64,000 bases of DNA from Protonemura montana (lineage: Eukaryota > Arthropoda > Insecta > Plecoptera > Nemouridae): NCBI GenBank assembly GCA_947568835.1, contig OX387612.1, positions 5,766,001 to 5,830,000 of the forward strand. Reading direction: 5' to 3'. This document shows, piece after piece, positions 764 through 24,526 of this stretch. The notes under the pieces are model-generated. The model made no database searches and was not told the DNA's origin. It saw only the letters and a list, made by a program, of their open reading frames with translations. Positions within the stretch are counted from its first letter, which is position 1; the number at the start of each line of letters is the position of its first letter. A program made the position numbers and the translations under genes.

Positions 764-3700
764 AGGGCGGACCTGGCCGTGGCTTCGATGACCATCAACT
801 ACGCGCGGGAAAGCGTCATCGACTTCACCAAGCCCTTCATGAACCTCGGCATCGGCATCCTGTTCAAGGTAATTAATCTGCACGCTTGTAATGCACTGAG
901 AGGAGTCAAAATTTGGGTTTTACACTACTAGTATTTTAGGTTAAGAATCACAGACAGCCTTGCAGCAAAATTCACACTTAAAAGCTAATTTATAAGGCTG
1001 TGAGTCCAACACAGAGACGACGGCGAGTGTCCGCTCCTTTGCGTGGAGCGAAACAAGCACCCTGTCACGGAATGTCCAGCACAGAGGCGACGGCGAGTGT
1101 CCGCTTCTTTGCGTGGAGCGAAACAAGCACCCTGTCATGGAATGTCCAGCACAGAGGCGACGGCGAGTGTCCGCTTCTTTGCGTGGAGTGAAACAAGCAC
1201 CCTGTCACAGAATGTCTAGCACAGAGGCGACGGCGAGTGTCCGCTCCTTTGCGTGGAGCGAAACAAGCACCCTGTCACAGAATGTCTAGCACAGAGGCGA
1301 CGGCGAGTGTCCGCTCCTTTGTGTGGAGCGAAACAAGCACCCTGTCACGGAATGTCCAGCACAGAGGCGACGGCGAGTGTCCGCTCCTTTGAGTGGAGCG
1401 AAACAAGCACCCTGTCACGGAATGTCCAGCACAAAGGTGACGGCAAGTGTCCGCTCCTTTGCGTGGAGCGAAACAAGCACCCTGTCACGGAATGTCCAGC
1501 ACAGAGGCGACGGCGAGTGTTCGCTCCTTTACGTGGAGCGAAACAAGCACCCTGTCACGGAATGTCCAGCACAGAGGCGACGGCGAGTTTCCACTCCTTT
1601 GCGTGGAGCGAAACAAGTCACGGAATGTCAAACGGTATTCTCGCGTTTTTTTCCAGTATTAGTGAAAGTTATTCAACTGTATTAACCTTGAATTACTCGC
1701 TAACTTCGCAGGTTCCGACCAGCCAGCCCACCCGTCTATTTTCTTTCATGAATCCGCTAGCCGCAGAAATCTGGATCTACGTCCTCGCCGCTTATCTCCT
1801 CGTCAGCTTCACCTTGTTCGTGATGGCACGTTTCTCTCCGTACGAGTGGAACAACCCTCATCCGTGTCTCGCCGAATCGGACGTCGTCGAGAACCAGTTC
1901 TCGGTGTCGAACAGTTTTTGGTTCATTACGGGCACGTTCCTTCGGCAGGGTTCCGGGCTGAATCCGAAGGTGATTCTTGGTTCAATTCGATTTTATTGTC
2001 TTTTTAGCATCTCGTTTAACACGTGATATGATGACATGTTGGTGAGCTGCGAGGCAGTATTGGGTTTTTAGAATTGTTCAGAGTGCCAAGTGTTATAATG
2101 TTTACCGATCAACGAAAAACAAAATCACCAACAGATTTTTACTAGGTATCAAAAAGAATTGGAATTGCTTCTTGGTGAAGTAACCGACTTTCTTGATTGT
2201 TCAACATTTGCAACGGGTTTACGCTTTTAAATCTTTATACTAAAAATAAACTTGTATCAATATTTTGAATAGAGATTTATTTAAAAAAGCGACCTCAAGC
2301 GTCAGGGTGGCACCTAACCCGTGGTTACCACGGGTTACCGGCTTGACTGCTCAGCAGAAAGATTAACATTGGCACTGGGACTCTGATTAAATCTTAACCC
2401 CCAATAATGGTAGGAAATTGGTGAACATGGACTAACATTTCTGCTATGATCCGAATTACTATTGTGTGTCAGCGCCTAAGAGGGATACAAGCCAATGGTT
2501 AACAACAAGTAACCCGTGCCCGGCATCGGGCAGTTCGTCACAATGTAATAGTAATGGGTGGGTGAACAAGGGTTGTCATGGCAATCTAAAACAAGTAACC
2601 CGTGCCCGGCATCGGGCAGTTCATCACAATGTAATAGTAATGGGTGGGTGAACAAGGGTTGTCATGCCAATCTAAAACAAGTAACCCGTGCCCGGCATTG
2701 GGCAGTTCATCACAATGTAATAGTAATGGGTGGGTGAACAAGGGTTGTCATGCCAATCTAAAACAAGTAACCCGTGCCCGGCATCGGGCAGTTCATCACA
2801 ATGTAATAGTAATGGGTGGGTGAATCAAGGGTTGTCATGGCAATCTAAAACAAGTAACCCGTGCCCGGCATCGGGCAGTTCATCACAATGTAATAGTAAT
2901 GGGTGGGTGAACAAGGGTTGTCATGCCAATCTAAAACAAGTAACCCGTGCCCGGCATTGGGCAGTTCATCACAATGTAATAGTAATGGGTGGGTGAACAA
3001 GGGTTGTCATGCCAATCTAAAACAAGTAACCCGTGCCCGGCATCGGGCAGTTCATCACAATGTAATAGTAATGGGTGGGTGAACAAGGGTTGTCATGCCA
3101 ATCTAAAACAAGTAACCCGTGCCCGGCATCGGGCAGTTCATCACAATGTAATAGTAATGGGTGGGTGAACAAGGGTTGTCATGCCAATCTAAAACAAGTA
3201 ACCCGTGCCCGGCATTGGGCAGTTCATCACAATGTAATAGTATGGTTGGGTGAAACAAGGGTTGTCATGGCAATCTAAAACAAGTAACCCGTGCCCGGCA
3301 TCGGGCAGTTCATCACAATGTAATAGTAATGGGTGGGTGAACAAGGGTTGTCATGCCAATCTAAAACAAGTAACCCGTGCCCGGCATTGGGCAGTTCATC
3401 ACAATGTAATAGTATGGTTGGGTGAACAAGGGTTGTCATGCCAATCTAAAACAAGTAACCCGTGCCCGGCATCGGGCAGTTCATCACAATGTAATAGTAA
3501 TGGGTGGGTGAACAAGGGTTGTCATGCCAATCTAAAACAAGTAACCCGTGCCCGGCATCGGGCAGTTCATCACAATGTAATAGTAATGGGTGGGTGAAAC
3601 AAGGGTTGTCATGGCAATCTAAAACAAGTAACCCGTGCCCGGCATCGGGCAGTTCATCACAATGTAATAGTAATGGGTGGGTGAACAAGGGTTGTCATGC

Positions 3701-6700
3701 CAATCTAAAACAAGTAACCCGTGCCCGGCATTGGGCAGTTCATCACAATGTAATAGTATGGTTGGGTGAAACAAGGGTTGTCATGGCAATCTAAAACAAG
3801 TAACCCGTGCCCGGCATCGGGCAGTTCATCACAATGTAATAGTAATGGGTGGGTGAAACAACGGTTGTCATGGCAATCTAAAACAAGTGACCCGTGCCCG
3901 GCATCGGGCAATTCATCACAATGTAATAGTAATGGGTGGGTGAAACAATGGTTGTCATGGCAATCTAAAACAAGTGACCCGTGCCTGGCATCGGGCAGTT
4001 CATCACAATGTAATAGTAATGGGTGGGTGAAACAAGGGTTGTCATAGCAATCTAAAACAAGTGACCCGTGCCCAGCATCGGGCAGTTCATCACAATGTTA
4101 TATATGTAAGTGAACTCAGCACGTAATGTTGCGCCATGTTACCTGTTTCCTAACGCGTCCAGCAGCGGTCTTTGGTTGGAATGGTAACTTTATCGATTGT
4201 CTGTCTCTGCTCGTTTTGTCTGTTTATAGATGTACGTTTGTCTTGCTTGTATCTTCAACTCGTTTGCATGCAAATACGTTTTTTTGTCTCTTGATGTCCG
4301 CAGACAGCTTCCAGGCCAATCCCAACACAATCCTAAAATGATCCTTTCCATTTGAGTCTGAAATGGTTTCCGTAAAGACAATTGATTCCGTAACTGAAAG
4401 TGTTCTAATTGCCAGCTTTTTGATCGGTCTTTTTTAGGCCGAATTCGTCTGGAGTGAAAACTTTCATTCGCCAAAAGTTAAAAATAAGCCCACCGTAATA
4501 ATCTTGTCATCATTTAATTGATTGAGTGATCAATTGATTGCTTTGAGGGGTTTAACGACGCAATGTTTTCTCAACTGGTACTGTGGCTCCGGCTTAATGG
4601 CGTCGGTGAATGAGTTGGTGATGATTAACCTAACCTAGCCTAGAAGGGAGAAGTTGAAACCCAGTGTTAGCACGTAGATAACTTAAGTCGGAGAGTGCCA
4701 AGAGCACCACTGGCTTTAAGTCCCTTCCGAAGGACGGTACAACGTGAACAGCAGGATTCCTCCACAAATCCATGCTGTCGAGAGGTTGATAAGCAAGGCG
4801 AGTGAAGTTGCTGTACTAACTTTCATCCCTCCCATCTCTCTCCCGAACAGAACTGGTCATGTGTATGATAGTCACCCATCCAATACCTGACCCAGCGCAG
4901 TGTTGCTTAACTTTGGTGATCTCACGAGGACTGGTGTTTCCAACTCGTCAAACCAATCGCTTTTTTACATGAAATGAAGGAATCCTCTTCATAATCAAGT
5001 TAATATAGAATGAAAAATAATTCAAAAGAAATTGATGAAAATAAATAATCTGAATATATGAATTTAATTTGTTCATTGTGAACGCACTGCGACAGCCAAA
5101 AATCTGATAAAATTTTATTCGATTCAGTAGCTTTTATTCAACAAATCAAAAATTCCTAAAATAAGCTGAATATGCTGAATTTTTCAACTTTGCACAGCCG
5201 ACAGTTGGTAATGTTTTACAAAACGAGACCATGCGAGTACAGCATCGCGTTGTGTGCACTTTTCAGATGTTTAGCCAACAAAACTTTTTCACTATTCGCA
5301 ATACGCATTTTCGCGAACATATCAGGCAATTGATACTGGCTGGCAAACCCTAGACTACATAAAAATGTATTTCTAATAACTTGTCTTCCAGAAAAAAAAC
5401 ACTGTAGTTGGTATCCAGATATTTGTTTAGATTAACTGCCCCAGTTGCCAATTAACCAAGATACCATAAAAAAAAATAACAAAAAAATGCAAAATTATCA
5501 GAATACGGTTGAGCGTATAGAAAACACCGGTGCAAGTCACCGAAGTTAAACAACACTGCGCTGAGTCAGGTATTGGATGGGTGACCATCATACACATTAC
5601 CAGTTCTGTTCGGGAGAGAGGTTGGAGGTATGAAAGTTAGTTCAGCATCTTCATTCACCTTGCTTATCAACCTATCAACAGCATTGATTTGTGGATACAT
5701 CCTGTTTTTCGTGTTGTACCGTCCTTCGGAAGTGACGTTAAGCCAGTGGTCCCCTTGGTGCTGTTCTACAGGAGTAGGCTACGTGTCAGCACCAGGTTTC
5801 CCCTCCTCCCTTCTAGGCTATCTTATATTCATCATCATCATCATCCACTCATTCACCAACGCCATTAGACCAGTGTCGCACGACCAGATATCAAAACAGT
5901 GCGTCGTTAAACACCACAAATCAACCAACGAAACGCAACACCCATCTCTTTCAGACCTCCGAAAGCATGTCATCGCGAATATTCTCCTTCCTGAACCCAC
6001 TGGCGGTCGAGATCTGGTTGTACATGTTTGGTGCCTACGTGATCGTCTCGCTGACCATCTGGGTGGTCGCCCGATTCAGTCCGTACGAGTGGCATGACCC
6101 CCCTCAATGCGCATGCTCCGGTCACAGTAGCGACGACCATCTTGTTGTCGAGAACGACTTCACAATTGCGAACAGTTTCTGGTTCGCCATCGGGACGTTG
6201 ATGCAACAAGGATCTGATATCAACCCCAAGGTGTGGTATGGCTCGTCGAGGGTTGCGCGTTTGGTGGTGGTTTTGCACCTGTATTGGCTAAAATATCAGT
6301 AGGATCATAGGGTTTCTGGTTAGTCAAAGTCTCAGCGCTAGTTTTAAGCTTTCTTCGCGAAAAATAGCTGCCAAATGACTACTTTACCGTGCGACAAGAA
6401 TTAAGGATGCTACTAAGTGAAATCGCCGTCGTTTCGGGTGTTTAAAAAATTTAATTTCGTTATTTCTCGCAGATAACTCGCATTTAAGACTGGTTAACCT
6501 TCGATTAAACTCTATTAATTCGAAACTTAACAATCGATGCAAATGTATCTATACTTTGAATCGTTATTATTTCATTGCAGTGGTTTTTACGCGCCATCTG
6601 TTGACCATAACCGTTACCACGCGTTGCCGGCTCGTTTGCTAAGTAGAACGTTTAAGATTAGCGCTGTGACTCTGACTGAACTATAAACCCGATGCTGGGA

Positions 6701-9700: not shown

Positions 9701-12700
9701 CCGTCCTTCCAGGTTCAAATATTAAACGGTGATTAGATCAGAGAGAAAATAGTGACAGCTGCTAAATAAAATTTATTTTATTTGACAGAACAAAGCCTTC
9801 CTGAATCATTACCAAATTTAAATTTAAATTAACATCTTTTTTGTGTATTTTTCTGAAAATCCTCTTTCAAATCTTTCAAAATGTCGGCTAAACAGGAAAA
9901 ATTAACTTTGGCCTCCGTTGAACGCCAATTAAGCAAGACTTAAACGGCGTTGGTGAAATCATCCCCTAAGCTGTAATTTCAGTTCACCAGAAATGTGATC
10001 ATAAACTAATTTAGGTGTAAATTTTTATAAGCCATGGCATCAGCAACCTTGACCAATAGAAAATATCCGGTCTCAGCTTTCCAAAATTTTAGTTAATATT
10101 TCCATTTTTCTTGCTCTTCACTGCTTCTCGGACTTTTATCATTACTTTGAAAAAATCTGCTGTTCTATGGATACAGGACCCACGCATGAGCAGAAATTTC
10201 ACCAAAAAAAATCTAATAGAAAAATGTAGAAATGTTATTTTATTTGCAAAGACTCTAGAAAGGTAATGGTATTTCTAGATCTTGATCTGATCTTGATAGA
10301 AGGTAATCCTAGGATAGAAGAGTATCGCTAACCACTCTATGCTTCAGGCCACCTCCACGCGCATCGTCGGCGGCATCTGGTGGTTCTTCACTTTGATCAT
10401 CATCTCGTCGTACACTGCAAACCTGGCGGCGTTCCTGACCGTCGAACGAATGATAACGCCCATCGAGAACGCCGCCGACCTCGCCGAACAGACAGAGATT
10501 GCCTACGGGACCCTCAACGGGGGTTCGACCATGACCTTCTTTAGGGTGAGCCGTTTGCAGTTTTTAAACTGGACTCGTAATTAATTTTTTTTTGCGAATT
10601 TTCAGCTTTGGAAAAATATATTTACGACGGCAACAAACATATTTGTGCTCGTTATCATTAAAAAAACACTGTTACTCCTCAAAAATGAGTGCCTAACTGG
10701 GGACTCGATTCGTAAACTTCGCGGGTGTTGCTCTAACCAATTGAGCTACTTGGGCATAGCCTGTTTGAAAGGATTTTAGTGCATCTGATGAGAATGACGG
10801 ACCTCCAAGGAGTAGAACCATGCGGCTGTGAATACTCACAGTCACTCTGATTCTAGTGACACTATACCACGTCACAACCTGTCAATCTCGAGTCACTTCA
10901 ATTTGACGAAGTTTTACGCTGTGAAATTTAGAAGAATTATAAGAATCGTCAGTACAGAGTGTATGTGCAGTACCTACTATGTCCATTACAAGTATTTGCA
11001 ATTTAAATCAGATTACACTTTAGCTGTTCTGGTATTGAGCACCCCGCACCTCCCACCCTACCTCCCGTTGAATGTTTACTGATGACGACATCAATACACA
11101 AGCCCAGGCTTAGCATAAGCACCTTTACCTATAGTTATAAATTGGTTAATCTAACACAAGCCTTATTATCCTATATTACAAATGCAATGTAAGTAGCTCA
11201 ACTAACCAGAAAGGAACCGTGGTACACTTTCGTTCGCTACGCTATATAGTATTAATTTGATCTCTGAAGAAATAAACTCCCTAGAGAGAGGAAATCTTTG
11301 TCTTCCATCGTTTATAATTGGGTGTACAGAACCACTTCAACAGCAGTTTGTTCGTCGCTGTCTTTGATCTTTGCCGAACTTTCTGAATCGGGTTAAGAGG
11401 CTCTCAAGAAAATTCAAAAATCGTTGCTATATTCCTCCACGGAACCTCTCGACGTAACGAAGTCCTGCCTCAGCCGAATTGTCAAGTCACACACAACTTT
11501 TTGCAGATAGAGATAACGAAGTTTTACATTTTAAGTGGATTTCCAATTCCTTAGTGTTTCAATTTAATGCCATGTTCGACTGGCTGCCCCGGTGCGCCCC
11601 GGGTGTGCACTGGGAGCGATCTGGGCATGTGACTCTGCCCCAGTGCAACTTTCACGTGTTCGACTGGGCATGTGACTCTGCCCCAGTGCAACTTTCACGT
11701 GTTTGACTGGGCATGTGACTCTGCCCCAGTGCAACTTTCACGTGTTCCACTGGGCATGTGACTCTGCCCCAGTGCAACTTTCACGTGTTCCACTGGGCAT
11801 GTGACTCTGCCCCAGTGCAACTTTCACGTGTTCGACTGGGCATGTGACTCTGCCCCAGTGCAACTTTCTCGTGTTCCACTGGGCATGTGACTCTGCCCCA
11901 GTGCAACTTTCACGTGTTTGACTGGGCATGTGACTCTGCCCCAGTGCAACTTTCACGTGTTCGACTGGGCATGTGACTCTGCCCCAGTGCAACTTTCACG
12001 TGTTCGACTGGGCATGTAACTCTGTCCCAGTGCAACTTTCACGTGTTCGACTGGGCATGTGACTCTGTCCCAGAGCAACTTTCACGTGTTCGACTGGGCA
12101 TGTGACTCTGCCCCAGTGCAACTTTCACGTGTTCGACTGGGCATGTGACTCTGCCCCAGTGCAACTTTCACGTGTTCGACTGGGCATGTGACTCTGTCCC
12201 AGTGCAACTTTCACGTGTTCGACTGGCAGAGTTGTTCGCTCTCGGGTCACTCCCGGTGCACTTTTCTAGCACCGAGAATTTCGACGGTGCATTTAGAAAA
12301 CAAATAAATGCACTGACAGCCAGTGATCAGGTGTTCGGGTGGGAGCGCTCTCGCTCGGAGCTGGTGCAAACCAGGTGGAGAGCATGACGTCATCGAGCAA
12401 GTTTCAAACCCACCCTGGTGCAGGCCAGTAAAAAACGTCACAAGAAAAGCGGAAAAGGGCGGGGGGCTTAGTTAATTGCCTTCATATTTTTATGATCCAA
12501 TTATCTGTCAGATACATCAAAGAAGAAACTTTCTCTTTCGATAAACAGACGCATTACGCATGGTGCTTCCAAAAAAGTTTAGGTTCAGTGTTTTTAAACC
12601 CTTTGTCCTGGCATTCGTAGAAGTCAACTTCAGAAACATTGACAGCTTACAGAATTTATTGATTGGCTGACTTGTCGAATGTATTGCATTGCACTGCTAT

Positions 12701-15700
12701 TATATTTCAGGTATTTACCTGTCGAAAAGGGGTAGGGATAGGTACGCGAGTTGGTAACACGGCTTCGATGGTCGTTGACACATGACACGATGAACATGAA
12801 TCGAACAAGGCGGCCTAATAAAAGCATTCTAAAAAAACCTCTTAATGCCACTTGATAATTTTTAAACTCAATGCTACTGAGATGAAGGAATACACTACAC
12901 CACAGAGCATAGTACACGTTGATGCAAATAGCAGAAAAGAATTAAATAATAGGTTATGTGAGATCTGATTTACATTGCAAACGCTTGCAATGCGCGGGGG
13001 AGTAGTGTTCCTAATAATTAAATAACAGGCTCTATCAACCTTATTCTGTACATGCCAATCGGTTTCCTACCTTGGATAACGGCGAAGCCGGCGTGAGGGT
13101 TAATAACCATAAGAAACCGAAAGACACACGAGCCAGCTTCGAGAGCATTTTGCTACAAAAACACAACACACGATAAATGTATATTTGATAAAAGTTTAAA
13201 TTCCTCGAAAACGATTTGAGCACTTGACTATAAAAACGACTATTTAATAACACGACGGATAAATCATAGCACATGTGCTTCACTCGGCTTGGTCAAATAG
13301 TATTACGCATAAATTATCAACCACGTTAGAACTCGATCACTGTTATGCACTGACTGACCAACTGACATGCTGTTCAACCTGTCACCACTTTTATTCAATA
13401 CCCAATCGACTCTTCCAAACCTGTATGACCGATTTACCCTGCTCTGACCTCTAACCCATACTAACAATAACAAAGCTAGTGTATTTCTACCCATAAGTAC
13501 ACTTAATTCTAAAACATATTGACCCGAAAGATAGATGATAAAAGTAACCAACTTTTGGCTTTGATGAAATTACGAATGCTTGTATAATATATCGTGGCTA
13601 TTTACATTTTTAAATGATACATTAATATAAGAAACGTAATTATAAGTTCCATGGGAGCGGAGGAATGGAAACAGAGAATTTTTTTCAAAATAAGTAAACT
13701 CATATTGAAAGATAAATTGGAGTTACCTGATCTCAAATAACCTCGATAGAGCATAGGATCCAGCCAGCTGATCTCAAATAACCTGGATAGAGCATAGGAT
13801 CCAGCCAGCAGATCTCAAATAATCTGGATATAGCATAGGATCCAGTCAGGTGATCTCAAATAACCTGGATAGAGCATAGGATCCAGCCAGCTGATCTCAA
13901 ATAACCTGGATAGAGCATAGGATCTAGCCAGCTGATTTCAAATAACCTGGATGGTGCAGGATCAAGCCAGCTGATCAAAATCGAAGATAGGCAATTAATT
14001 TTTATCAAATATTAGCAGTCCCTCAATTCGAGTTGTCCGTGGGATTGCAATGCTAATTTTAGAGTTCTTGAAATACATTTTCAACCAATTTTGACCATTC
14101 AAGTGCTGAAAAATACCTAAGCAATGATGAAAACTCCTCAACTTGATATTATTTTGTTTACATCTCAAAGCGTTGCGTCTAATATTCCATTTTCTCTTCA
14201 CAGGACTCCAAGATCGGAATCTACCAGAAGATGTGGAGATTCATGGACTCAAAGAGGTCGGCAGTGTTCGTCGAGACGTACGACGACGGGGTGAAGAGGG
14301 TGCTGGAAGGGGACTACGCGTTCCTGATGGAGTCCACCATGTTGGACTACGCGGTCCAGAGGGACTGTAATCTAACGCAGATCGGTGGTCTGCTGGACTC
14401 GAAGGGATACGGCATAGCCACGCCTAAAGGTTCGACAGGATTTTGTAGTTTTGGGTTAGAGAAAAGTTAGTTTGGTGGCATAGTTGAAGGTCCGAAGGCA
14501 TATCCAATGGTTAGATCTACTGTCTGGTAATCCCTTGAACATTTCTTCAAAATCGGATCAGGTATTGAGCCTTAAAAAGTAGACGTAAGTTGACTTATTG
14601 TTCTTGAAATATCTCTTTAAGACAAGCTAATTCTGGTGTTCCTTTGGCTGCAGCGCTCGCGGGTCTTTTGCCCCTTTTTACCCTTCCTTGTCAGTGGCAC
14701 GGGCAGAAGTCATTCACTAAAACTTTGCAAATTACTTGAAAAGAGTTGAAAAACAAGTAATCCGTGTCTGGCATCCGACAGTTCATCACAATGTTAAAGT
14801 AATGGGTAGGTGAAACAAGGGTTACCATGGCAATCTAAAACAAGTAACCCGTGCCCGGCATCGGACAGTTCATCACAATGTTAAAGTAATGGGTGGGTGA
14901 AACAAGGGTTGTCACGGCAATCTAAAACAAGTAACCCGTGCCCGGCATCTGGCAGTTCATCACAATGTAATAGTAATGGGTGGGTGAAACAAGGGTTATC
15001 ATGGCAATCTAAAACAAGTAACCCGTGCCCGGCATCGGGCAGTTCATCACAATGTAATAGTAATGGGTGGGTGAAACAAGGGTTGTCATAGCAATCTAAA
15101 ACAAGTAACCAGTGCCCGGCATCGGGTAGTTTATCACAATGTAATAGTAATGGGTGGGTGAAACAAGGGTTGTCATGGCAATCTAAAACAAGTAACCCGT
15201 GCCCGGCATCGGGCAGTTCATCACAATGTAATAGTAATGGGTGGGTGAAACAAGGATCGTCACGGCAATCCAAATCAAGTAACCCGTGCCCGGCATCAGA
15301 CAGTTCATCACAATGTAATAGTAATGGGTGGGTGAAACAAGGGCTGTCATGGCAATCTAAAACAAGTAACCCGTGCCCGGCATCGGACAGTTCATCACAA
15401 TGTAATAGTAATGGGTGGGTGAAACAAGGGTTGTCATGGCAATCTAAAACATGTAACCCGTGCCCGGCATCGGGCAGTTCATCACAATGTAATAGTAATG
15501 GGTGGGTGAAACAAGGGTTGTCATGGCAATCTAAAACAAGTAACCCGTGCCCGGCATCGAGCAGTTCATCACAATGTAATAGTAATGGGTGGGTGAAACA
15601 AAGGTTGTCATGGCAATCTGAAACAAGTAACCCGTGCCCGGCACCGGGCATCGAACATGCAAACCTAATCCAGACTTAAATGCATTAATTCCCATCTCCC

Positions 15701-18700
15701 TGCAGGTTCAGTTTGGCGAGACAAGATCTCGCTGGCGATCCTGGAGCTGCAGGAGAAGGGGGTGATCCAGATCTTGTACGACAAGTGGTGGAAGAACACT
15801 GGAGACGTGTGCAACAGAGATGACAAGAGCAAAGAGTCGAAGGCCAACGCACTAGGCGTAGAAAATATCGGTACGTTGAATAGAAGTTCGTTTTATTTCA
15901 GTGTTTACAAAACAAATATGTGTGAAAATGTTTTAAGTCACGGAGGGAGAAGGCAATGATCTTTACTTAAAAACAGAACTTAATTTAAAAAAAAATATTT
16001 TATTTGGTATTTCTGTGTAAATACTTTGTTTTGATCCAAATTATCTTTTTACTCATCCAGAAAGCCTGATGGCCTCATGGTTTTTAGACTCATATCTACT
16101 TTAACTAATCTTAGCACTAGTTTTGGGAAACACTTTTTTAACTGGGTTTTGAATGCAAAGTGAAGACTGAAGAACTGAAGTGAAGAATTCTTCAATTATA
16201 GCATTCAAACCCCAGTTTAAAAAGTGTTTGTTCTTGTTGTCTTTTTGACAGATATCTGTTCTTGTTAAACAGGTGGAGTATTCGTAGTTCTTCTGTGTGG
16301 CCTTGCCTTGGCCATCTTGGTCGCAATACTAGAGTTCTGTTGGAACTCCAAGAAGAATGCTCAAACTGACAGGGTGAGTACATTTTAAAATATTGTTGGA
16401 AATATTCTCAATACATTGCACAAAATACGGTCGAATTATAATGCTTTTATTTGTTTGTAAAGTGTATTTACTATAAGCTATTAGGTACATTATAATTTCT
16501 GCTATTTTCCATTCTCTCACATTTTTCTCATTTTTCTTAATTTTTTTCATTCGTTTCATTTCATATCTTCCCAATTATTCCATTATAATTTCTCAACCCT
16601 TTTGTTAATATCCTGTGTTCCCTTCCTGGGCTTATGAATAACATATCTTTGTTCCTCGATAACGTCGATACTCATGTACGTCACTTACTAAGGTAGTTCA
16701 TTTTTATCGACAACGAAATGTAAGAAAATGTCTTGTCCAGGTAAAAAACGAATGAGACTTAGATGAAAATATTTTCTTCTGATTGACTATGGTCGATGAG
16801 TTTTTCGCTGACAGTTATTGTAAAACTTGCCCTAATGGACTTACTGCTAAATTAAGATGTGAACAGTCTGATTTCAAATTTGCGTTTGCCTTAACGTAGA
16901 TTTAATGCTCCGTTAGTTCTGAAAAGGCCTCAGTAATAGGATGAAATCTTATTTTAAATTGCAAACGCTTCCAATGCGCGAGGTATTTTATTATTAACAT
17001 CACTATAACCGTCTCAAAAATGTATGCCCAAACGCGGACTCGAACCCCGATCTCCATGGGTGGAGATCGGGGTTCGAGTCTGCCTTTGGGCATCAATTTT
17101 TGAGACGGTTATAGTGTTGTTAATAATAAAAGGCCTTAGTAACGTCACAACATACCAGTAAATAACATCCTGGCATTGATCATAGTATTTAAGCAACTGA
17201 CAGCTGATGCAAATCTGTATGTGCCACAGCAATCGCTGTGCAGCGAAATGGCCGAGGAGCTTCGTTTTGCCGTTCGCTGCCACGGATCTAGACAGCGTCC
17301 TGCGCTGCGCAGGTCCTGCACACGCTGCTCGCCGGCAGCCACCTACGTTCCAGCAGCGATGGACTTGCCACACGTCAACGGGGTGAGTGCGTCTTGGCGG
17401 TCAGGTTAGGTTAGGTACAGTAGTGGCATAGATAGAGATTATTTGTTTATTTAGTACAATTTACAACAATAATAATAAGAAAAAAAACACAGAAATTGGA
17501 TTTTATGTTGTCAATTGTTTTCTTTCAAAAATTGAGTACACATTTTTTAGCTTTCTAGGATATAATCGTATTTTTTTTATCATTTTATATCCTCTATAAA
17601 AAATTAGTACTGGGTCCAAGTTTTTTTTTTAACAAAAGTTTACATTAACCTTATATAAAAGCTTTAAAATTGCGATGTTCAACTTTTTAGTTTGTATCTG
17701 ACCAGCTGACCAGCTGACCAGCTGGGGTAACATTTTTCTGTACATGTTGATTTAAATTGCGAAATTTGGTTAAAAACGTGTGCAATTGGGTTATAATTGT
17801 TCAAAATTAAAATCTCTATCCTATTGTGACACTTTGAGGGTGATTTGAAAGCGTTTTTTTGGTGAAATATTGATAATTGTGTTTGAAATTTCCTGCCTAG
17901 GAAAATTGGAGCCATGTCTCACAGTTCGATTTTTATTTCATTCAAAACTTGCCTTTAAATGACCTGCAGCAGTTTGGTAATACTCTTCATGCATGCCTAT
18001 GAAAGTTATTGAAGAAATTGAGCACAAACGCTGTTATTTACGTTCGTTTTAAGTGAAATAGAAATAATTTTGCAAAAAGTTTGACAGATGCATTCATTTG
18101 TTTGGTTTTTTGACCACTGCAGGGTGAACGAATTCTTAAACTTATCTTTGAGGCAGTGCATTCAGGATATTCAAACGTCAAACGGGATTAGAACGTCAAA
18201 TACTTTAAGAAATCGGTTAAACATTGCTGGAAATAATTTTAAATGTTACATGGCTTCAGAGCATGACCCAACGCGACATTTCTACGCTGATTTGATGGGA
18301 TTTTCATAATAAATTTTATTTCAAACTGGGTGGCAAGGAAAGATTTTGACAGTTCTCAAACAATGTCAAACAACTTAATTACCAAAGAAACCTACATTTT
18401 GTCAATTTTAAGTGCTTATCCGTTCATTAAACATGTTTTTAGGAAGATCTGGTGGAGATGTAAAAGGTATTTCACAAGTTTCACTCCCTAAGAAATATTT
18501 CACGAAAATCTTTTGACAGCCAACGTCGTTTGTTTTCGAAATTGTCATCGTAGTCACTTTGGAATTCACAGAGTTTCCACAATGCAGTGACCCCGAGTGA
18601 CAGAAGCGGCAAATTTGAAATAAAATAAATGGGGGTACTTTTGGTTGTGGTCCCCAAAATGCACACTCCCTCAAAATCTTAAGGTGCCGTTAGGCATCGG

Positions 18701-20824
18701 GTTCTGCTAGTTAACCTTATATAAAAGCCTTAAATCTGCGATGTTCAACTTTTTAGTTTGTATCTGGCGACCGACCAGCTGGGGTAACATTTTTCTGTAC
18801 ATGTTGATTTAAATTGCGAAATTTGGTTAAAAACGTGTGCAATTGGGTTATAATTGTTCAAAATTAAAATCTCTATCCTATTGTGACACTTTGAGGGTGA
18901 TTTGAAAGCGTTTTTTTGGTGAAATATTGATAATTGTGTTTGAAATTTCCTGCCTAGGAAAATTGGAGCCATGTCTCACAGTTCGATTTTTATTTCATTC
19001 AAAACTTGCCTATTACTCACCCGCAGCAGCTCGGTAATACTGTTTATGCATGCCTATGAAAGTTATTGAAGAAATTGAGCACAAACGCTGTTATTTACGT
19101 TCGTTTTACGTGAAATAGAAATAATTTTGCAAAAAGTTTGACAGATGCATTCATTTGTTTGGTTTTTTGACCACTGCAGGGTGAACGAATTCTTGAACTT
19201 ATCTTTGCGGCAGTGAATTCAGGATATTTAAACGTCAAAAAGGATTAGAACATCAAATACTTTTTAGAAACCAGTCAAACATTGCTGGGAATAATTTTAA
19301 ATCTTACATGACTTCAGAGCACGACCCAACGCGACATTTATACGGTGATTTGATGGGATTTTCGTTTTGAATTTTATTTAAAACTGGCTGGCAAGGGAAG
19401 GTTTTGACAGTTCTCAAACAATGTCAAACAACTTAATTACCAAAGAAACTTACATTTTGTCAATTTAAGGTGCTTATCCATTCATTTAACAGGTTTTTAG
19501 TCAGATCTGGTGGAGATGTAAAAGGTATTTCACAAGTTTCACTCTCTAAGAAATATTTCACGGAAATCTTTTGACAGCCAACGTCGTTTGTTTCCGAAAT
19601 TGTCATCGTGGTCACTTTGGAATTCACAGAGTTTCCACAATGCAGTGACCCCGAGTGAAATAAACGGCAAATTTCAAATTAAATAAATGGGGGTACTTTT
19701 GGTTGTGGTCCCATTAGAGGCTTTACATTTAAACCAAAATGCTCACTCCCTCAAAAGCTTAAGGTGCCGTTAGGCATCGGGTTCTGCTAGTTCCCATTAA
19801 AATTGTAAGAGTTGAAATCAGTAAAATTTCTTAGAGGAATTCTAGTTTAGGTACCTACAGAATTGTGCGGTCACATTTTCACCCCCCATCTTCCCTCCTG
19901 TTGAAAGAAAAGAAGTGGTCATGTTCCCCAACAACATTTTTGACCGTAGTTTCAATTTAAAACATTTTTTTTCCCGAATAATACAAATTTAAACTTGGCA
20001 CACTTAAAACTGGCGTTTAATTTATAAAAGCATTTCTAAGAATTTTTAAGATAAGTCCATTTTCAAGCGACTACTTAAAAAGAACTAGCTGCGTAAATGC
20101 CTATGACGTCTTTCTTTTCATTTCGTTTCAGATTGAAAAGATAGATTGGACTTTTTGACATGACTGCTTCTTTCTCTCATTTGCCAACTACTGCCGTCAA
20201 TTGGGGCGTACGTACAAGAAAATTACTCTAGTACTTTGCTTTTGTACTTTTTTTTTTTAATATCTATTTTTTTTTTCTGTGCATGAATTTTATGATTACT
20301 ACTTTTTTATGGTTTACTGTCATTATAACATTTTCATACAAATCAAATGTCATGACAAACTCCATTGATATTCCTATTCCATTAAATCAATTTAGAATTT
20401 ATCTTGCTATGTGTCTGTGGGCCAATTTAGAGATCTTGGCACAGCTTGGTGACTTTTGATCAAAACTGGCATTTTTTCTATGGATACCATTAGCAACAAT
20501 TTGAAATATCTATTGATTAATAGTTGTCGAAATCAAAAAAAAAAACTTGGAAACACAGTTCTGAAGCAATTTTTTTTAAAGTTTGGATAAAAATATGACT
20601 TGAGATCTACCTAAAATTAGTGCAACAAAACTAATTTTGAATCAAAAAATAAAATCAACAAACGAACTTGTCCTTTTTTCCATGATAGGCCTTAACTTTG
20701 GTGCGATTCATACCCAACACCTTAAGAAATATGTAACAAACCATGATTTAATTCACAGGAGCCTGGAATTCTTCAGATGATAGAAATGAAAAAATCCTCG
20801 CTAAGCTATGATCAAGACTCATAG
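764..20824 (+). CDS. Grik2: Ionotropic glutamate receptor, kainate type (5' partial)
   Basis: Glutamate-gated cation channel subunit of the plasma membrane. Exons: 764-868 (end of S1, with the [13 protein letters not shown] motif), 1712-1969 and 5955-6230 (alternative M1/M2 exons, described separately), 10348-10545 (M3, with SYTANLAAF), 14204-14429 and 15706-15870 (S2 ligand-binding lobe), 16273-16373 (M4, [17 protein letters not shown]), 17230-17382 (cytoplasmic tail) and a final short exon 20759-20824 coding 21 residues and TAG. All junctions have AG/GT ends and matching phases (0,0,0,1,1,0,0). The N-terminal domain and start lie left of the window. The residue pattern ([36 protein letters not shown]) is that of arthropod kainate receptors; assignment to the kainate 2-like group is from memory. 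The last exon is the least certain: it rests on a good acceptor, phase 0 and a [10 protein letters not shown] motif. Confidence 0.9.
1010..1640. repeat. 70-bp minisatellite array in kainate receptor intron
   Basis: About nine tandem copies of a 70-bp unit (acagaggcgacggcgagtgt ...), with starts near 1081, 1151, 1221, 1291, 1361, 1431, 1501 and 1571 and a truncated last copy. Because 70 is not a multiple of 3 and the unit is GC-rich without stops, it creates overlapping spurious reading frames. It ends about 70-80 bp before the exon at 1712. Confidence 0.95.
1712..1969 (+). CDS. Grik2: Kainate receptor alternative exon 'R' (pre-M1, M1, pore loop; Arg at Q/R site)
   Basis: Exon of 86 codons with phase 0 at both ends, acceptor cag at 1709-1711 and donor gtgatt from 1970. 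It encodes the S1-M1 linker ([15 protein letters not shown]), M1 ([19 protein letters not shown]), the RFSPYEW motif and the pore loop [19 protein letters not shown]. The residue aligned with the AMPA/kainate Q/R site is Arg, coded CGG at 1943-1945. It is paralogous to 5955-6230, and both are flanked by compatible phase-0 exons, so each could replace the other. A 70-bp minisatellite ends about 80 bp before its acceptor. Confidence 0.9.
2270..2400. mobile_element. Family B relic fragment
   Basis: A short piece with 'gtggcacctaacccgtggtt' and 'gcttgactgctcagcagaaa', matching in reverse the 'ctgagcaaacgagccggcaa' and 'ggtaacagtaggtgccac' blocks of the other family B copies. It sits in the intron just before the 86-bp array. 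Confidence 0.5.
2470..4100. repeat. 86/87-bp minisatellite array, first locus
   Basis: Roughly nineteen copies of an 86- or 87-bp unit (acaagtaacccgtgcccggc ... tggcaatctaaa) between the two alternative exons of the kainate receptor. Units differ by one base (tgaacaagg versus tgaaacaagg), giving mixed 86- and 87-bp periods. The same unit recurs in the same orientation at 14745-15660. Reading frames inside it are repeat artefacts. Confidence 0.96.
4580..4948 (-). mobile_element. 5S-rRNA-derived SINE (SINE3-type), reverse orientation
   Basis: Read on the minus strand it starts with a 5S rRNA internal promoter region: 'cgtgagatcaccaaagttaa', 'gcaacactgcgctgggtcag', 'gtattggatgggtgac'. This matches the 5S rRNA segment GATCACCGAAGTTAAGCAGC ... 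GGATGGGTGAC. A non-5S body follows (gaccagttctgttcgggaga ... ttgtaccgtccttcggaag) and a tail with 'accaacgccatt'. It forms an inverted pair with the copy at 5535-5885. Confidence 0.85.
5535..5885 (+). mobile_element. 5S-rRNA-derived SINE (SINE3-type)
   Basis: The 5S-like head 'gtcaccgaagttaaacaaca' and 'gtattggatgggtgaccatc' is followed by the shared body and a (atc)n-rich tail ending near 'cattcaccaacgccattaga'. A frame at 5630-6097 is SINE sequence running into the Q exon, not a gene. The element ends about 70 bp before the Q-exon acceptor. Confidence 0.87.
5955..6230 (+). CDS. Grik2: Kainate receptor alternative exon 'Q' (pre-M1, M1, pore loop; Gln at Q/R site)
   Basis: Exon of 92 codons, phase 0 at both ends, acceptor ttcag ending at 5954 and donor gtgtgg from 6231. 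It encodes the same segment as 1712-1969: [15 protein letters not shown]1, RFSPYEW, then a longer Cys- and His-containing linker, and the pore loop [19 protein letters not shown]. The Q/R-site codon is CAA (Gln) at 6204-6206. The M1-M2 linker is six codons longer than in the other exon and has two extra Cys (CAC). The open frame and intact splice sites argue for function. Including both exons would give two M1/pore segments, so mutually exclusive use is inferred. Confidence 0.88.
6310..6690. mobile_element. Family B MITE-like relic
   Basis: Contains 'gctgccaaatgactacttta', 'cgcagataactcgcatttaa gactggtt', then 'gttaccacgcgttgccggct cgtttgct'. These are the same ordered blocks, in reverse, as at 330-720 and 38030-38260. 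Intronic, directly after the Q exon of the kainate receptor. Confidence 0.62.
7288..7565. mobile_element. Family A fold-back element, both arms present
   Basis: The left arm 'gatggtttttagactcgtgt ... actatttgaaatgggttttg aatgctaagtaaag ... cccgacgtttcgtaacatgt' is followed, after a short centre near 7440-7465, by its reverse complement down to 'aaacccatttcaaatagttt'. The two arms could fold into a long hairpin of more than 100 bp. No coding capacity. This is the cleanest copy in the window. Confidence 0.88.
8098..8215. mobile_element. Family A fold-back element, right arm only
   Basis: 'ctaacccttgaagaagtaac ... gttgcgaaacgtcgggaaat ... cattcaaaacccatttcaaa tagttttt' matches the right arm of the element at 7288-7565. 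The left arm is absent. The stretch 8220-10345 holds no exon that I can see; it contains only a family D tail at about 8890-8955. Confidence 0.75.
10690..10985 (-). mobile_element. Family D tRNA-derived SINE, reverse orientation
   Basis: On the minus strand, 'caagtagctcaattggttag agcaacac' resembles a tRNA A box, and a degenerate B box lies in 'gaatcgagtccccagtt'. The body contains the invertible segments 'tactcacagtcactctgatt' and 'gacactataccacgtcac' seen again at 42745-43145 and 46755-47060. It lies in the intron after the receptor M3 exon. Confidence 0.72.
11600..12225. repeat. 43-bp minisatellite array
   Basis: About fourteen tandem copies of a 43-bp unit (gtgactctgccccagtgcaa ctttcacgtg ttcgactgggcat) in the intron between the kainate receptor exons at 10348 and 14204. 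Each unit carries a CACGTG palindrome; one copy has CTCGTG instead. Degenerate flanks contain further 'gtgcaccgggag'-like pieces up to about 12420. Confidence 0.95.
12960..13022. mobile_element. Family D SINE tail fragment
   Basis: 'attgcaaacgcttgcaatgc gcggg' then 'gtgttcctaataattaaata', the shared 3' tail of family D (compare 8925-8955, 16955-17000 and 56900-56960). The surrounding stretch 12226-13720 shows no exon. Confidence 0.6.
13722..13980. repeat. 41-bp minisatellite array
   Basis: Six copies of a 41-bp unit (ctgatctcaaataacctgga tagagcatag gatccagccag) about 220 bp before the acceptor of the exon at 14204. Single diverged copies of the unit occur at about 53142-53170 (direct) and 53415-53452 (inverted) near the GEMIN5 start, so the unit also exists outside the array. 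Confidence 0.92.
14745..15660. repeat. 87-bp minisatellite array, second locus (same unit as 2470-4100)
   Basis: About ten to eleven copies of the unit at 2470-4100, here almost uniformly 87 bp. Because 87 is a multiple of 3, long repetitive open frames appear on both strands (up to 256 codons on the minus strand). They are read here as non-coding. The array lies in the intron between exons 14204-14429 and 15706-15870 and stops about 45 bp before the downstream acceptor. Confidence 0.95.
16075..16225. mobile_element. Family A fold-back element, short copy
   Basis: 'catggtttttagactcatat ... ttagcactagttttgggaaa' and 'ggttttgaatgcaaagtgaa', followed closely by the reversed 'gcattcaaaccccagtttaa aaagtgtttg'. 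It ends about 45 bp before the acceptor of the M4 exon at 16273. Confidence 0.7.
16940..17145. mobile_element. Family D SINE pair forming a palindrome
   Basis: A reverse-orientation copy (ttgcaaacgcttccaatgcg ... tcactataaccgtctcaaaa ... gcggactcgaaccccgatct) meets a forward partial copy (gtggagatcggggttcgagt ... tttgggcatcaatttttgag acggttatagtgtt). The centre, at about 17050-17070, is in the tRNA B-box region. It lies in the intron between the M4 and tail exons. Confidence 0.75.
17645..18710 (+). mobile_element. Helitron-like non-autonomous element, tandem copy 1
   Basis: A unit of about 1.07 kb runs from TTAACCTTATATAAAAGC to GGTTCTGCTAG. Its 3' end has a 4-bp stem hairpin (TGCC-gtta-GGCA), ten bases, then CTAG followed by T, the layout of a Helitron 3' end (hairpin, then CTRR). 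The 5' end does not begin with TC, so the class is tentative. No Rep/helicase frame was seen. It lies in the receptor intron 17383-20758. Confidence 0.6.
18711..19790 (+). mobile_element. Helitron-like non-autonomous element, tandem copy 2
   Basis: A directly abutting second copy of 17645-18710, starting with the same TTAACCTTATATAAAAGC and ending with the same hairpin plus CTAG, again followed by T. Differences are scattered substitutions, a shortened 'ccagctgaccagctg' motif and a 23-base insertion near 19715. By eye the copies are highly similar throughout. Confidence 0.6.
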
Positions 20825-24136: not shown

Positions 24137-24526
24137 ATGGAAGCAGCACTAACTGGACAGTTAACAGGCAACCAAAAGGATGAGTTAATGGACCAGGTCA
24201 AACAACAAATAGCCGTCGCAAACGCACAGGAATTACTAACGGTAAGTTGGAAGATGTCGTTTTTAGGTTATGTAACACATGGCCAAAATCTAGCTCATAG
24301 AATAAGGAATTCCTGTTCATTTCCCATACCCAGAAACTGACTCTTCATTTTTTTTCAGAAAATGACAGAGAAATGCTTCAAGAAATGTGTTGGCAAACCT
24401 GGAACATCGTTAGACAGCACAGAACAGAAATGTGTCGCAATGTGTATGGACCGATACATGGATTCTTGGAATCTAGTCTCGAAAGCGTACAGTAATCGAT
24501 TGCAACGTGAACGACATGCAATGTAG
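24137..24526 (+). CDS. TIMM13: Mitochondrial import inner membrane translocase subunit Tim13
   Basis: Two exons, 24137-24241 and 24359-24526, join at phase 0 to give 90 aa. Tim13 pairs with Tim8 as a hexameric intermembrane-space chaperone that hands hydrophobic precursors to the TIM22 pathway. The twin CX3C motifs are present (CFKKC and CVAMC, eleven residues between them), with the family-specific [15 protein letters not shown] helix before and [20 protein letters not shown] after. Length matches the family (about 95 aa). The first exon would end in ELLT. An in-frame read-through of the intron is possible but would lose the Cys motifs. Confidence 0.97.

What the first reader, a model, noticed from the sequence alone, without database searches (positions are those of the whole stretch)
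1712..6230. Mutually exclusive pore exons hard-wire Arg or Gln at the Q/R site of a kainate receptor
Exons 1712-1969 and 5955-6230 are paralogous, both phase 0/0, both with intact splice sites, and lie between single-copy exons (764-868 and 10348-10545). They encode the same M1-to-pore segment. At the position of the vertebrate Q/R editing site one has CGG (Arg, 1943-1945) and the other CAA (Gln, 6204-6206). In vertebrates, ADAR editing changes CAG to a codon read as CGG, and this lowers calcium permeability and polyamine block. Here the same switch could be made by exon choice, and M1 and the linker (two extra Cys in the Q exon) would change with it. The Arg pore sequence may occur alone in other insect kainate receptors (a memory I cannot check). 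The apparent novelty is both forms in one gene.
Basis: partly seen in the sequence, partly recalled or inferred. Interest (0 to 1): 0.88.

Follow-up and report, generated by a model that had tools for sequence, protein, structure and literature searches.

The report
Insect kainate receptor with alternative pore exons
An insect glutamate-receptor gene carries two versions of the exon that forms the channel pore, one with arginine and one with glutamine at the site that controls calcium flow, so splicing could do what RNA editing does in vertebrates, although how the two exons are combined in transcripts remains to be measured.

Summary
Confirmed. Exons 1712-1969 (A) and 5955-6230 (B) are intact phase-0 paralogues between single-copy exons of a kainate-receptor gene. 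A has Arg (CGG), B has Gln (CAA) opposite GluK2 Q621.

The switch is larger than reported: A also has Gly where B has Asp, four residues downstream. Both sites are reported to act on calcium permeability and polyamine block. In 113 two-cassette proteins the first cassette is Arg+Gly in all; the second is Gln in 112 (Asp 109, Asn 2, Glu 1 at +4).

The pair occurs across insects and crustaceans, including Drosophila; in this genome a paralogue also has it (Lys/Gln). Annotated D. virilis isoforms X3 and X2 use A alone or B alone and are otherwise identical.

Mutual exclusivity is not shown: those 113 proteins, of 338 retrieved (best 120 of each of three searches), carry both cassettes in one chain, nearly all as gene models, and the frame allows it.

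Best reading: alternative splicing sets the pore's calcium and polyamine properties, mainly by single inclusion; tandem inclusion is minor or spurious. Channel effects are inferred. Ten searches of an incomplete open-access library found no description. New variant of a known kind.

The parts
764..868 (+). constant exon, end of the S1 ligand-binding half, phase 0/0
   Evidence: splice sites and frame; tblastn to Melipona P0101, 92%
1712..1969 (+). exon A: pre-M1, M1, linker and pore loop with Arg (R cassette)
   Evidence: homologues
1943..1945 (+). CGG, Arg at the Q/R position
   Evidence: aligned with GluK2 Q621
1955..1957 (+). GGG, Gly at the +4 position (GluK2 has Glu there)
1970..5954 (+). 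intron between A and B, 3985 nt; holds a minisatellite 2504-4102 and inverted repeat arms 4534-4919 / 5537-5928
5955..6230 (+). exon B: pre-M1, M1, longer linker and pore loop with Gln (Q cassette)
   Evidence: homologues
6204..6206 (+). CAA, Gln at the Q/R position
6216..6218 (+). GAT, Asp at the +4 position
10348..10545 (+). constant exon with M3 (SYTANLAAF) and start of S2
14204..14429 (+). constant exon, S2
15706..15870 (+). constant exon, end of S2
16273..16373 (+). constant exon, M4
17230..17382 (+). constant exon, cytoplasmic tail
20132..20158 (+). last coding exon with stop codon

Best explanation
This is a kainate-type glutamate receptor gene with a tandem pair of alternative M1-pore exons. 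Splicing exon A or exon B between the S1 exon and the M3 exon gives a subunit with an Arg/Gly pore or a Gln/Asp pore. By analogy with vertebrate AMPA and kainate receptors, the Arg/Gly form should have low calcium permeability and little polyamine block, and the Gln/Asp form should be calcium-permeable and inwardly rectifying. M1 and the M1-pore linker change along with the pore. Shown: sequence, splice sites, phases, deep conservation of both cassettes and both residue pairs, and annotated single-inclusion isoforms in orthologues. Inferred: use of both exons in this species, predominance of single inclusion, and the channel properties.
For: Intact exons and matching phases. In the 113 two-cassette proteins of 338 examined, the first cassette is Arg+Gly in 113 and the second is Gln in 112, with Asp (109), Asn (2) or Glu (1) at +4; the exception is Bombyx, R then R. 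Single-inclusion isoforms of one gene: D. virilis P0256 (R) and P0279 (Q), identical at residues 1-217 and over the last 289; Popillia P0003/P0056 and Anoplophora P0270/P0289 for the paralogue, and mayfly Cloeon P0271/P0253 for this gene. Among the 338, 22 records (several per species in places) have S1-A-M3 joined directly, and 6, plus P0260 by inspection, have S1-B-M3. In one search, limited to short proteins, 1 of the 120 listed is tandem (P0120). Exon A is 99% identical to termite and grasshopper orthologues. [quoted passage not shown]
Against: Two-cassette records are common: 113 of 338, of which 15 belong to the paralogue. They outnumber the records with one cassette and both junctions seen for this gene (22 R, 6-7 Q). 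One of them, P0204 (Clastoptera), comes, as I recall, from a transcriptome assembly and joins both the pore pair and a duplicated S1 pair. Double inclusion keeps the frame, so nothing in the sequence enforces exclusivity. No transcript of this species was seen.
Confidence: 0.73

Rival explanations
1. Both exons are normally included together, so the mature subunit has two M1-pore cassettes in tandem (R then Q), with the first pore loop perhaps crossing the membrane.
For: 113 of 338 retrieved proteins have two cassettes in one chain, from decapods to flies; the frame is open through both; P0204, transcript-derived as I recall, has both; 1 of 120 short records (P0120, amphipod) is tandem.
Against: Single-inclusion isoforms exist for both cassettes. 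The lists favour tandem records, because two matches score more and, I assume, the longest member represents a 90% cluster. Models of the paralogue also join a duplicated S1 exon in tandem, which is hard to fit to a ligand-binding domain. The expected topology would put S2 on the wrong side of the membrane unless the first loop spans it (reasoning, not computed). Structure prediction could not decide: mean pLDDT 55.4 for a tandem and 52.9 for a single-cassette control.
Confidence: 0.1
2. Only exon A (Arg) is used in this species and B is a relic kept open by chance.
For: B is less conserved than A: 78% against 99% to termite. A few taxa show only R in the records retrieved: Periplaneta (3 isoform records) and Lepidoptera (3 records: P0127, P0281, P0292).
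Against: B is open with splice sites, and the second cassette keeps Gln in 112 of 113 two-cassette proteins. B-alone records exist for a fly, a bug, a mayfly, a shrimp and a lobster.
Confidence: 0.06
3. The Q/R state in this gene is still set by ADAR editing of the CAA in exon B, and exon A serves some other purpose (gating, assembly).
For: CAA can be recoded to an Arg codon by A-to-I editing; long inverted repeats (304 nt, 83% complementary) lie just upstream of exon B and would form a duplex.
Against: Arg is encoded outright in exon A together with Gly at +4, which editing of one adenosine cannot give. The inverted repeats look like a pair of recent repeat copies; their conservation could not be tested.
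Confidence: 0.04
4. Two genes were misassembled together.
For: Not tested directly with reads.
Against: Same strand, single flanking exons, and the same cassette order in orthologues of many species.
Confidence: 0.01

Closest known systems
Vertebrate Q/R-site editing in GluA2, GluK1 and GluK2
   Same: Gln or Arg at the same pore position, two forms from one gene, predicted effect on calcium permeability and polyamine block (passages).
   Different: Made there by A-to-I editing at one adenosine; here by choice of an 86- or 92-codon exon that also changes M1, the linker and the acidic +4 residue.
AMPA receptor flip/flop mutually exclusive exons
   Same: Alternative homologous exons in an ionotropic glutamate receptor gene (PMC8257547 passages).
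   Different: Flip/flop lies at the end of S2; its 115-nt exons change frame if both are used, these do not.
Alternative ion-channel exons of insects (Rdl, para, nAChR alpha-6, slowpoke; recalled)
   Same: Tandem exon choice tunes channel properties in arthropods.
   Different: I know of none at the selectivity site of an ionotropic glutamate receptor.
Drosophila CG11155 and its orthologues
   Same: Orthologous R and Q cassettes; D. virilis X3 and X2 use one each. The D. busckii record P0224 is named CG11155 and is a tandem model.
   Different: Known to me only as annotation. Of the 20 CG11155 papers listed I saw passages of one on that gene; it does not mention isoforms.

Membership tests
Kainate-type ionotropic glutamate receptor | Lig_chan pore domain with SYTANLAAF and M1-P-M3 order | tested here: met
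Kainate-type ionotropic glutamate receptor | closest solved relatives are kainate receptors | tested here: met
   GluK2 chains are best for both exons
Kainate-type ionotropic glutamate receptor | channel gated by glutamate or kainate | not testable with these tools
   needs recordings
Mutually exclusive exon cluster | neighbouring homologous exons of like length and same phase between constant exons | tested here: met
Mutually exclusive exon cluster | each exon used alone in some transcripts | tested here: inconclusive
   annotated isoforms of orthologues use each alone; no transcript reads were seen, and none of this species
Mutually exclusive exon cluster | never or rarely both together | tested here: inconclusive
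   113 of 338 retrieved proteins carry two cassettes, mostly gene models; 1 of the 120 hits
Mutually exclusive exon cluster | double inclusion blocked by frame shift or a very short intron | tested here: not met
   lengths 258 and 276, intron 3985 nt; one possible mechanism, not a requirement
ADAR Q/R-edited receptor | Arg produced by editing a genomic Gln codon | tested here: not met
   Arg is encoded by CGG in exon A; editing of exon B was not testable

The most novel reading that the evidence does not exclude
Arthropod kainate receptors keep an in-frame double-cassette form in which one subunit carries both an Arg/Gly and a Gln/Asp M1-pore unit in tandem, conserved from crustaceans to flies, giving a receptor topology unlike any known glutamate receptor, in addition to the single-cassette forms.
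Probability: 0.07. Interest if true: 0.95.

Novelty: new variant of a known kind. Interest (0 to 1): 0.78.

Why it matters
The Q/R site is the classic example of a channel property set by RNA editing. If one arthropod gene makes both states by exon choice, and changes the second determinant (+4) at the same time, then two lineages reached the same control by different routes, and the arthropod route can be followed by counting splice junctions in each neuron type. It also predicts that Drosophila CG11155 gives calcium-permeable and calcium-poor subunits from one locus, which is directly testable in a model animal.

Tried and rejected
Misassembly of two genes and chance similarity were rejected on orthologous cassette order and conservation.

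Single origin of the pair before the two genes split: with all columns the A1+A2 cassettes (with a springtail R cassette) form a clade, 100/99; holding A1+B1 together is just rejected (p 0.046), A2+B2 is not (p 0.10). With the pore columns removed the signal is gone: A1+A2 p 0.446, A1+B1 p 0.398. So the support rests on the pore motif itself, and convergence or gene conversion is not excluded.

Structure prediction of a tandem model and of a single-cassette control both came out with low confidence; uninformative, so no fold search was run.

Placing the species: the constant-region tree did not resolve it; in the exon tree exon A lies with Polyneoptera. It is an insect, order unproven; a stonefly would fit the 258 Mb genome (recalled, untested).

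Literature: ten searches listed no paper that I recognised as describing these exons; most listed papers were not opened. Passages only were seen of PMC6307864, PMC3391646, PMC8257547, PMC3923563, PMC12875582, PMC11188076, PMC5769321, PMC2924276, PMC4521455 and PMC4245912. The library lacks most subscription journals, and supplementary tables could not be opened, so a catalogue of exclusive exons may list the Drosophila pair.

My first reading that none's hits was tandem was wrong (P0120). The first residue counts (Arg+Gly in 134 A1 and 17 A2; Gln+Asp in 91 B1) covered only cassettes at least 60% identical to a reference, with labels that partly rest on the pore; one search replaces them. In one search, 3 of 338 proteins (P0093, P0302, P0332) had no recognised pore. 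Of 10 labelled B1-alone with both junctions I count 6 and leave out P0026, P0085, P0091 and P0314, unnamed or not clearly this gene; P0260 is added by inspection.
Full report
WHAT IS THERE. The window lies at C15:5766001-5830000 of a 258 Mb genome. Two exons, A (1712-1969) and B (5955-6230), encode the same segment of a kainate-type glutamate receptor: pre-M1, M1, linker and pore loop. Both have AG and GT boundaries and phase 0 at both ends, and lie between single exons for the end of S1 (764-868) and for M3 (10348-10545). The gene continues through 14204-14429, 15706-15870, 16273-16373 and 17230-17382 to a stop at 20158. It starts upstream: an S1 exon lies in L010, and amino-terminal-domain exons were read by eye from open frames in L021 and L010. 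The whole-genome Pfam search lists no third M1-pore hit in the window.

THE SWITCH IS AT TWO SITES. The alignment of exon A with a GluK2 chain ends at residue 629, which places the Arg (CGG, 1943-1945) opposite Q621; exon B aligns over the same stretch with Gln (CAA, 6204-6206). Four residues further A has Gly (GGG) and B has Asp (GAT). [quoted passage not shown] I examined 338 retrieved proteins, which are the best 120 listed by each of three searches, overlaps removed (2081, 793 and 1822 hits in all). 113 of them hold two pore cassettes. The first is Arg+Gly in all 113. The second is Gln in 112, with Asp at +4 in 109, Asn in 2 and Glu in 1; the exception is a Bombyx mandarina model with two Arg cassettes. 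These records include many isoforms and close relatives and are not independent.

HOW WIDE. The pair is found in decapods, Daphnia, Artemia, mayflies, dragonflies, orthopteroids, bugs, Hymenoptera, beetles and flies including Drosophila. Exon A is 99% and exon B 78% identical to a termite orthologue. Within this genome a paralogue on the other strand, its pore exons about 290 kb away (L009), also has two cassettes in the same order, Lys+Gly first and Gln+Asp second, both with AG/GT and phase 0. The exon tree with all columns joins the Arg cassettes of both genes, but removing the pore columns removes that signal; a single ancient exon duplication is plausible, not shown.

ARE THEY ALTERNATIVES? 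Annotated isoforms answer for orthologues. In D. virilis, isoform X3 joins S1-A-M3 and isoform X2 joins S1-B-M3, and the two records are identical at residues 1-217 and over the last 289 residues. Popillia and Anoplophora show the same for the paralogue (the Anoplophora pair also differs at residues 47-114), and the mayfly Cloeon for this gene, its Arg record lacking the S1 junction. Of the 338 proteins, 22 have A alone with both junctions and 6 (plus P0260 by inspection) have B alone with both junctions. Against this, 113 carry two cassettes in one chain, 15 of them for the paralogue. The searches favoured such records, since a second match adds score; 90% clustering may also hide shorter isoforms. 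In one search, limited to proteins of about 103-327 residues, 1 of 120 listed hits is tandem, the amphipod record P0120. In one search none of the 26 listed proteins sourced only from lgn, ena or jgi is tandem, but 17 of these have His or Lys at the site and only one has an R cassette (P0274), so this says little. P0204 (Clastoptera) is a tandem record that I recall to be transcriptome-derived, so double inclusion probably occurs at some level. Gene models of the paralogue also run two S1 exons together, which suggests that in-frame tandem joins are partly an annotation habit. The AlphaFold comparison could not help.

MECHANISM. The best-supported account is regulated splicing that puts one cassette into most transcripts. 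Nothing in the DNA forces exclusivity: both exons are multiples of three and the intron between them is 3985 nt. Inverted repeat arms (304 nt, 83% complementary, with a further 92-nt pair) lie between A and B and end 26 nt before exon B, and fold into a long duplex. They look like a repeat pair of this lineage, and any role in splicing or editing is speculation. By analogy with vertebrate receptors (PMC3391646 and PMC8257547, passages seen) the Arg/Gly form should pass little calcium and the Gln/Asp form more; no recording was available.

COMPARISON AND NOVELTY. It works like Q/R editing but is not a member of that class, because Arg is encoded. It is anatomically a tandem alternative exon pair, like flip/flop, but at the pore. 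Database isoforms already contain both forms, so the sequences are not new; the two-site pore switch, its conservation and its presence in two paralogues were not described in any paper recognised in ten searches of the library, which is incomplete.

Noticed in passing
L023 7407-7225 and 3400-3212 (minus strand; own-genome paralogue): The paralogue also has two S1 ligand-binding exons in tandem. Other species' models use either alone (Lycorma X3 P0189; Tribolium P0230) or both, so this gene could combine two S1 choices with two pore choices.
   Followed up: partly
L012 about 2770-3088 (C2:6.822 Mb): A third glutamate receptor gene has two adjacent linker-pore exons about 44 nt apart, both Gln+Asp: pore-exon duplication without a Q/R change.
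   Followed up: partly
L009 5796-5545 (minus strand): The paralogue's first cassette has Lys at the Q/R site and a run of eight Arg in the linker; it is open with splice sites but on a long branch.
   Followed up: partly
retrieved chelicerate proteins (P0278, P0284, P0288, P0322) and unnamed relatives: Spider and pseudoscorpion relatives carry His at the Q/R site, and some unnamed sequences carry Lys.
   Followed up: no
window 4534-4919 and 5537-5928: Long inverted repeat arms ending 26 nt before exon B; a possible dsRNA and ADAR substrate next to the Q exon.
   Followed up: partly
window 2504-4102 and 14750-15650: The same 86-87 bp minisatellite family occurs in two introns of the gene; other arrays at 1004-1617 (70 bp) and 11621-12226 (43 bp).
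   Followed up: no
P0127 (Bombyx mandarina model): Two R cassettes with the same sequence in tandem; the three lepidopteran records seen (P0127, P0281, P0292) show only R cassettes.
   Followed up: no
window about 24137-24526 (+): Small two-exon gene whose reading looks like a mitochondrial Tim13-type protein with twin CX3C motifs (read by eye; family recalled, not searched).
   Followed up: no
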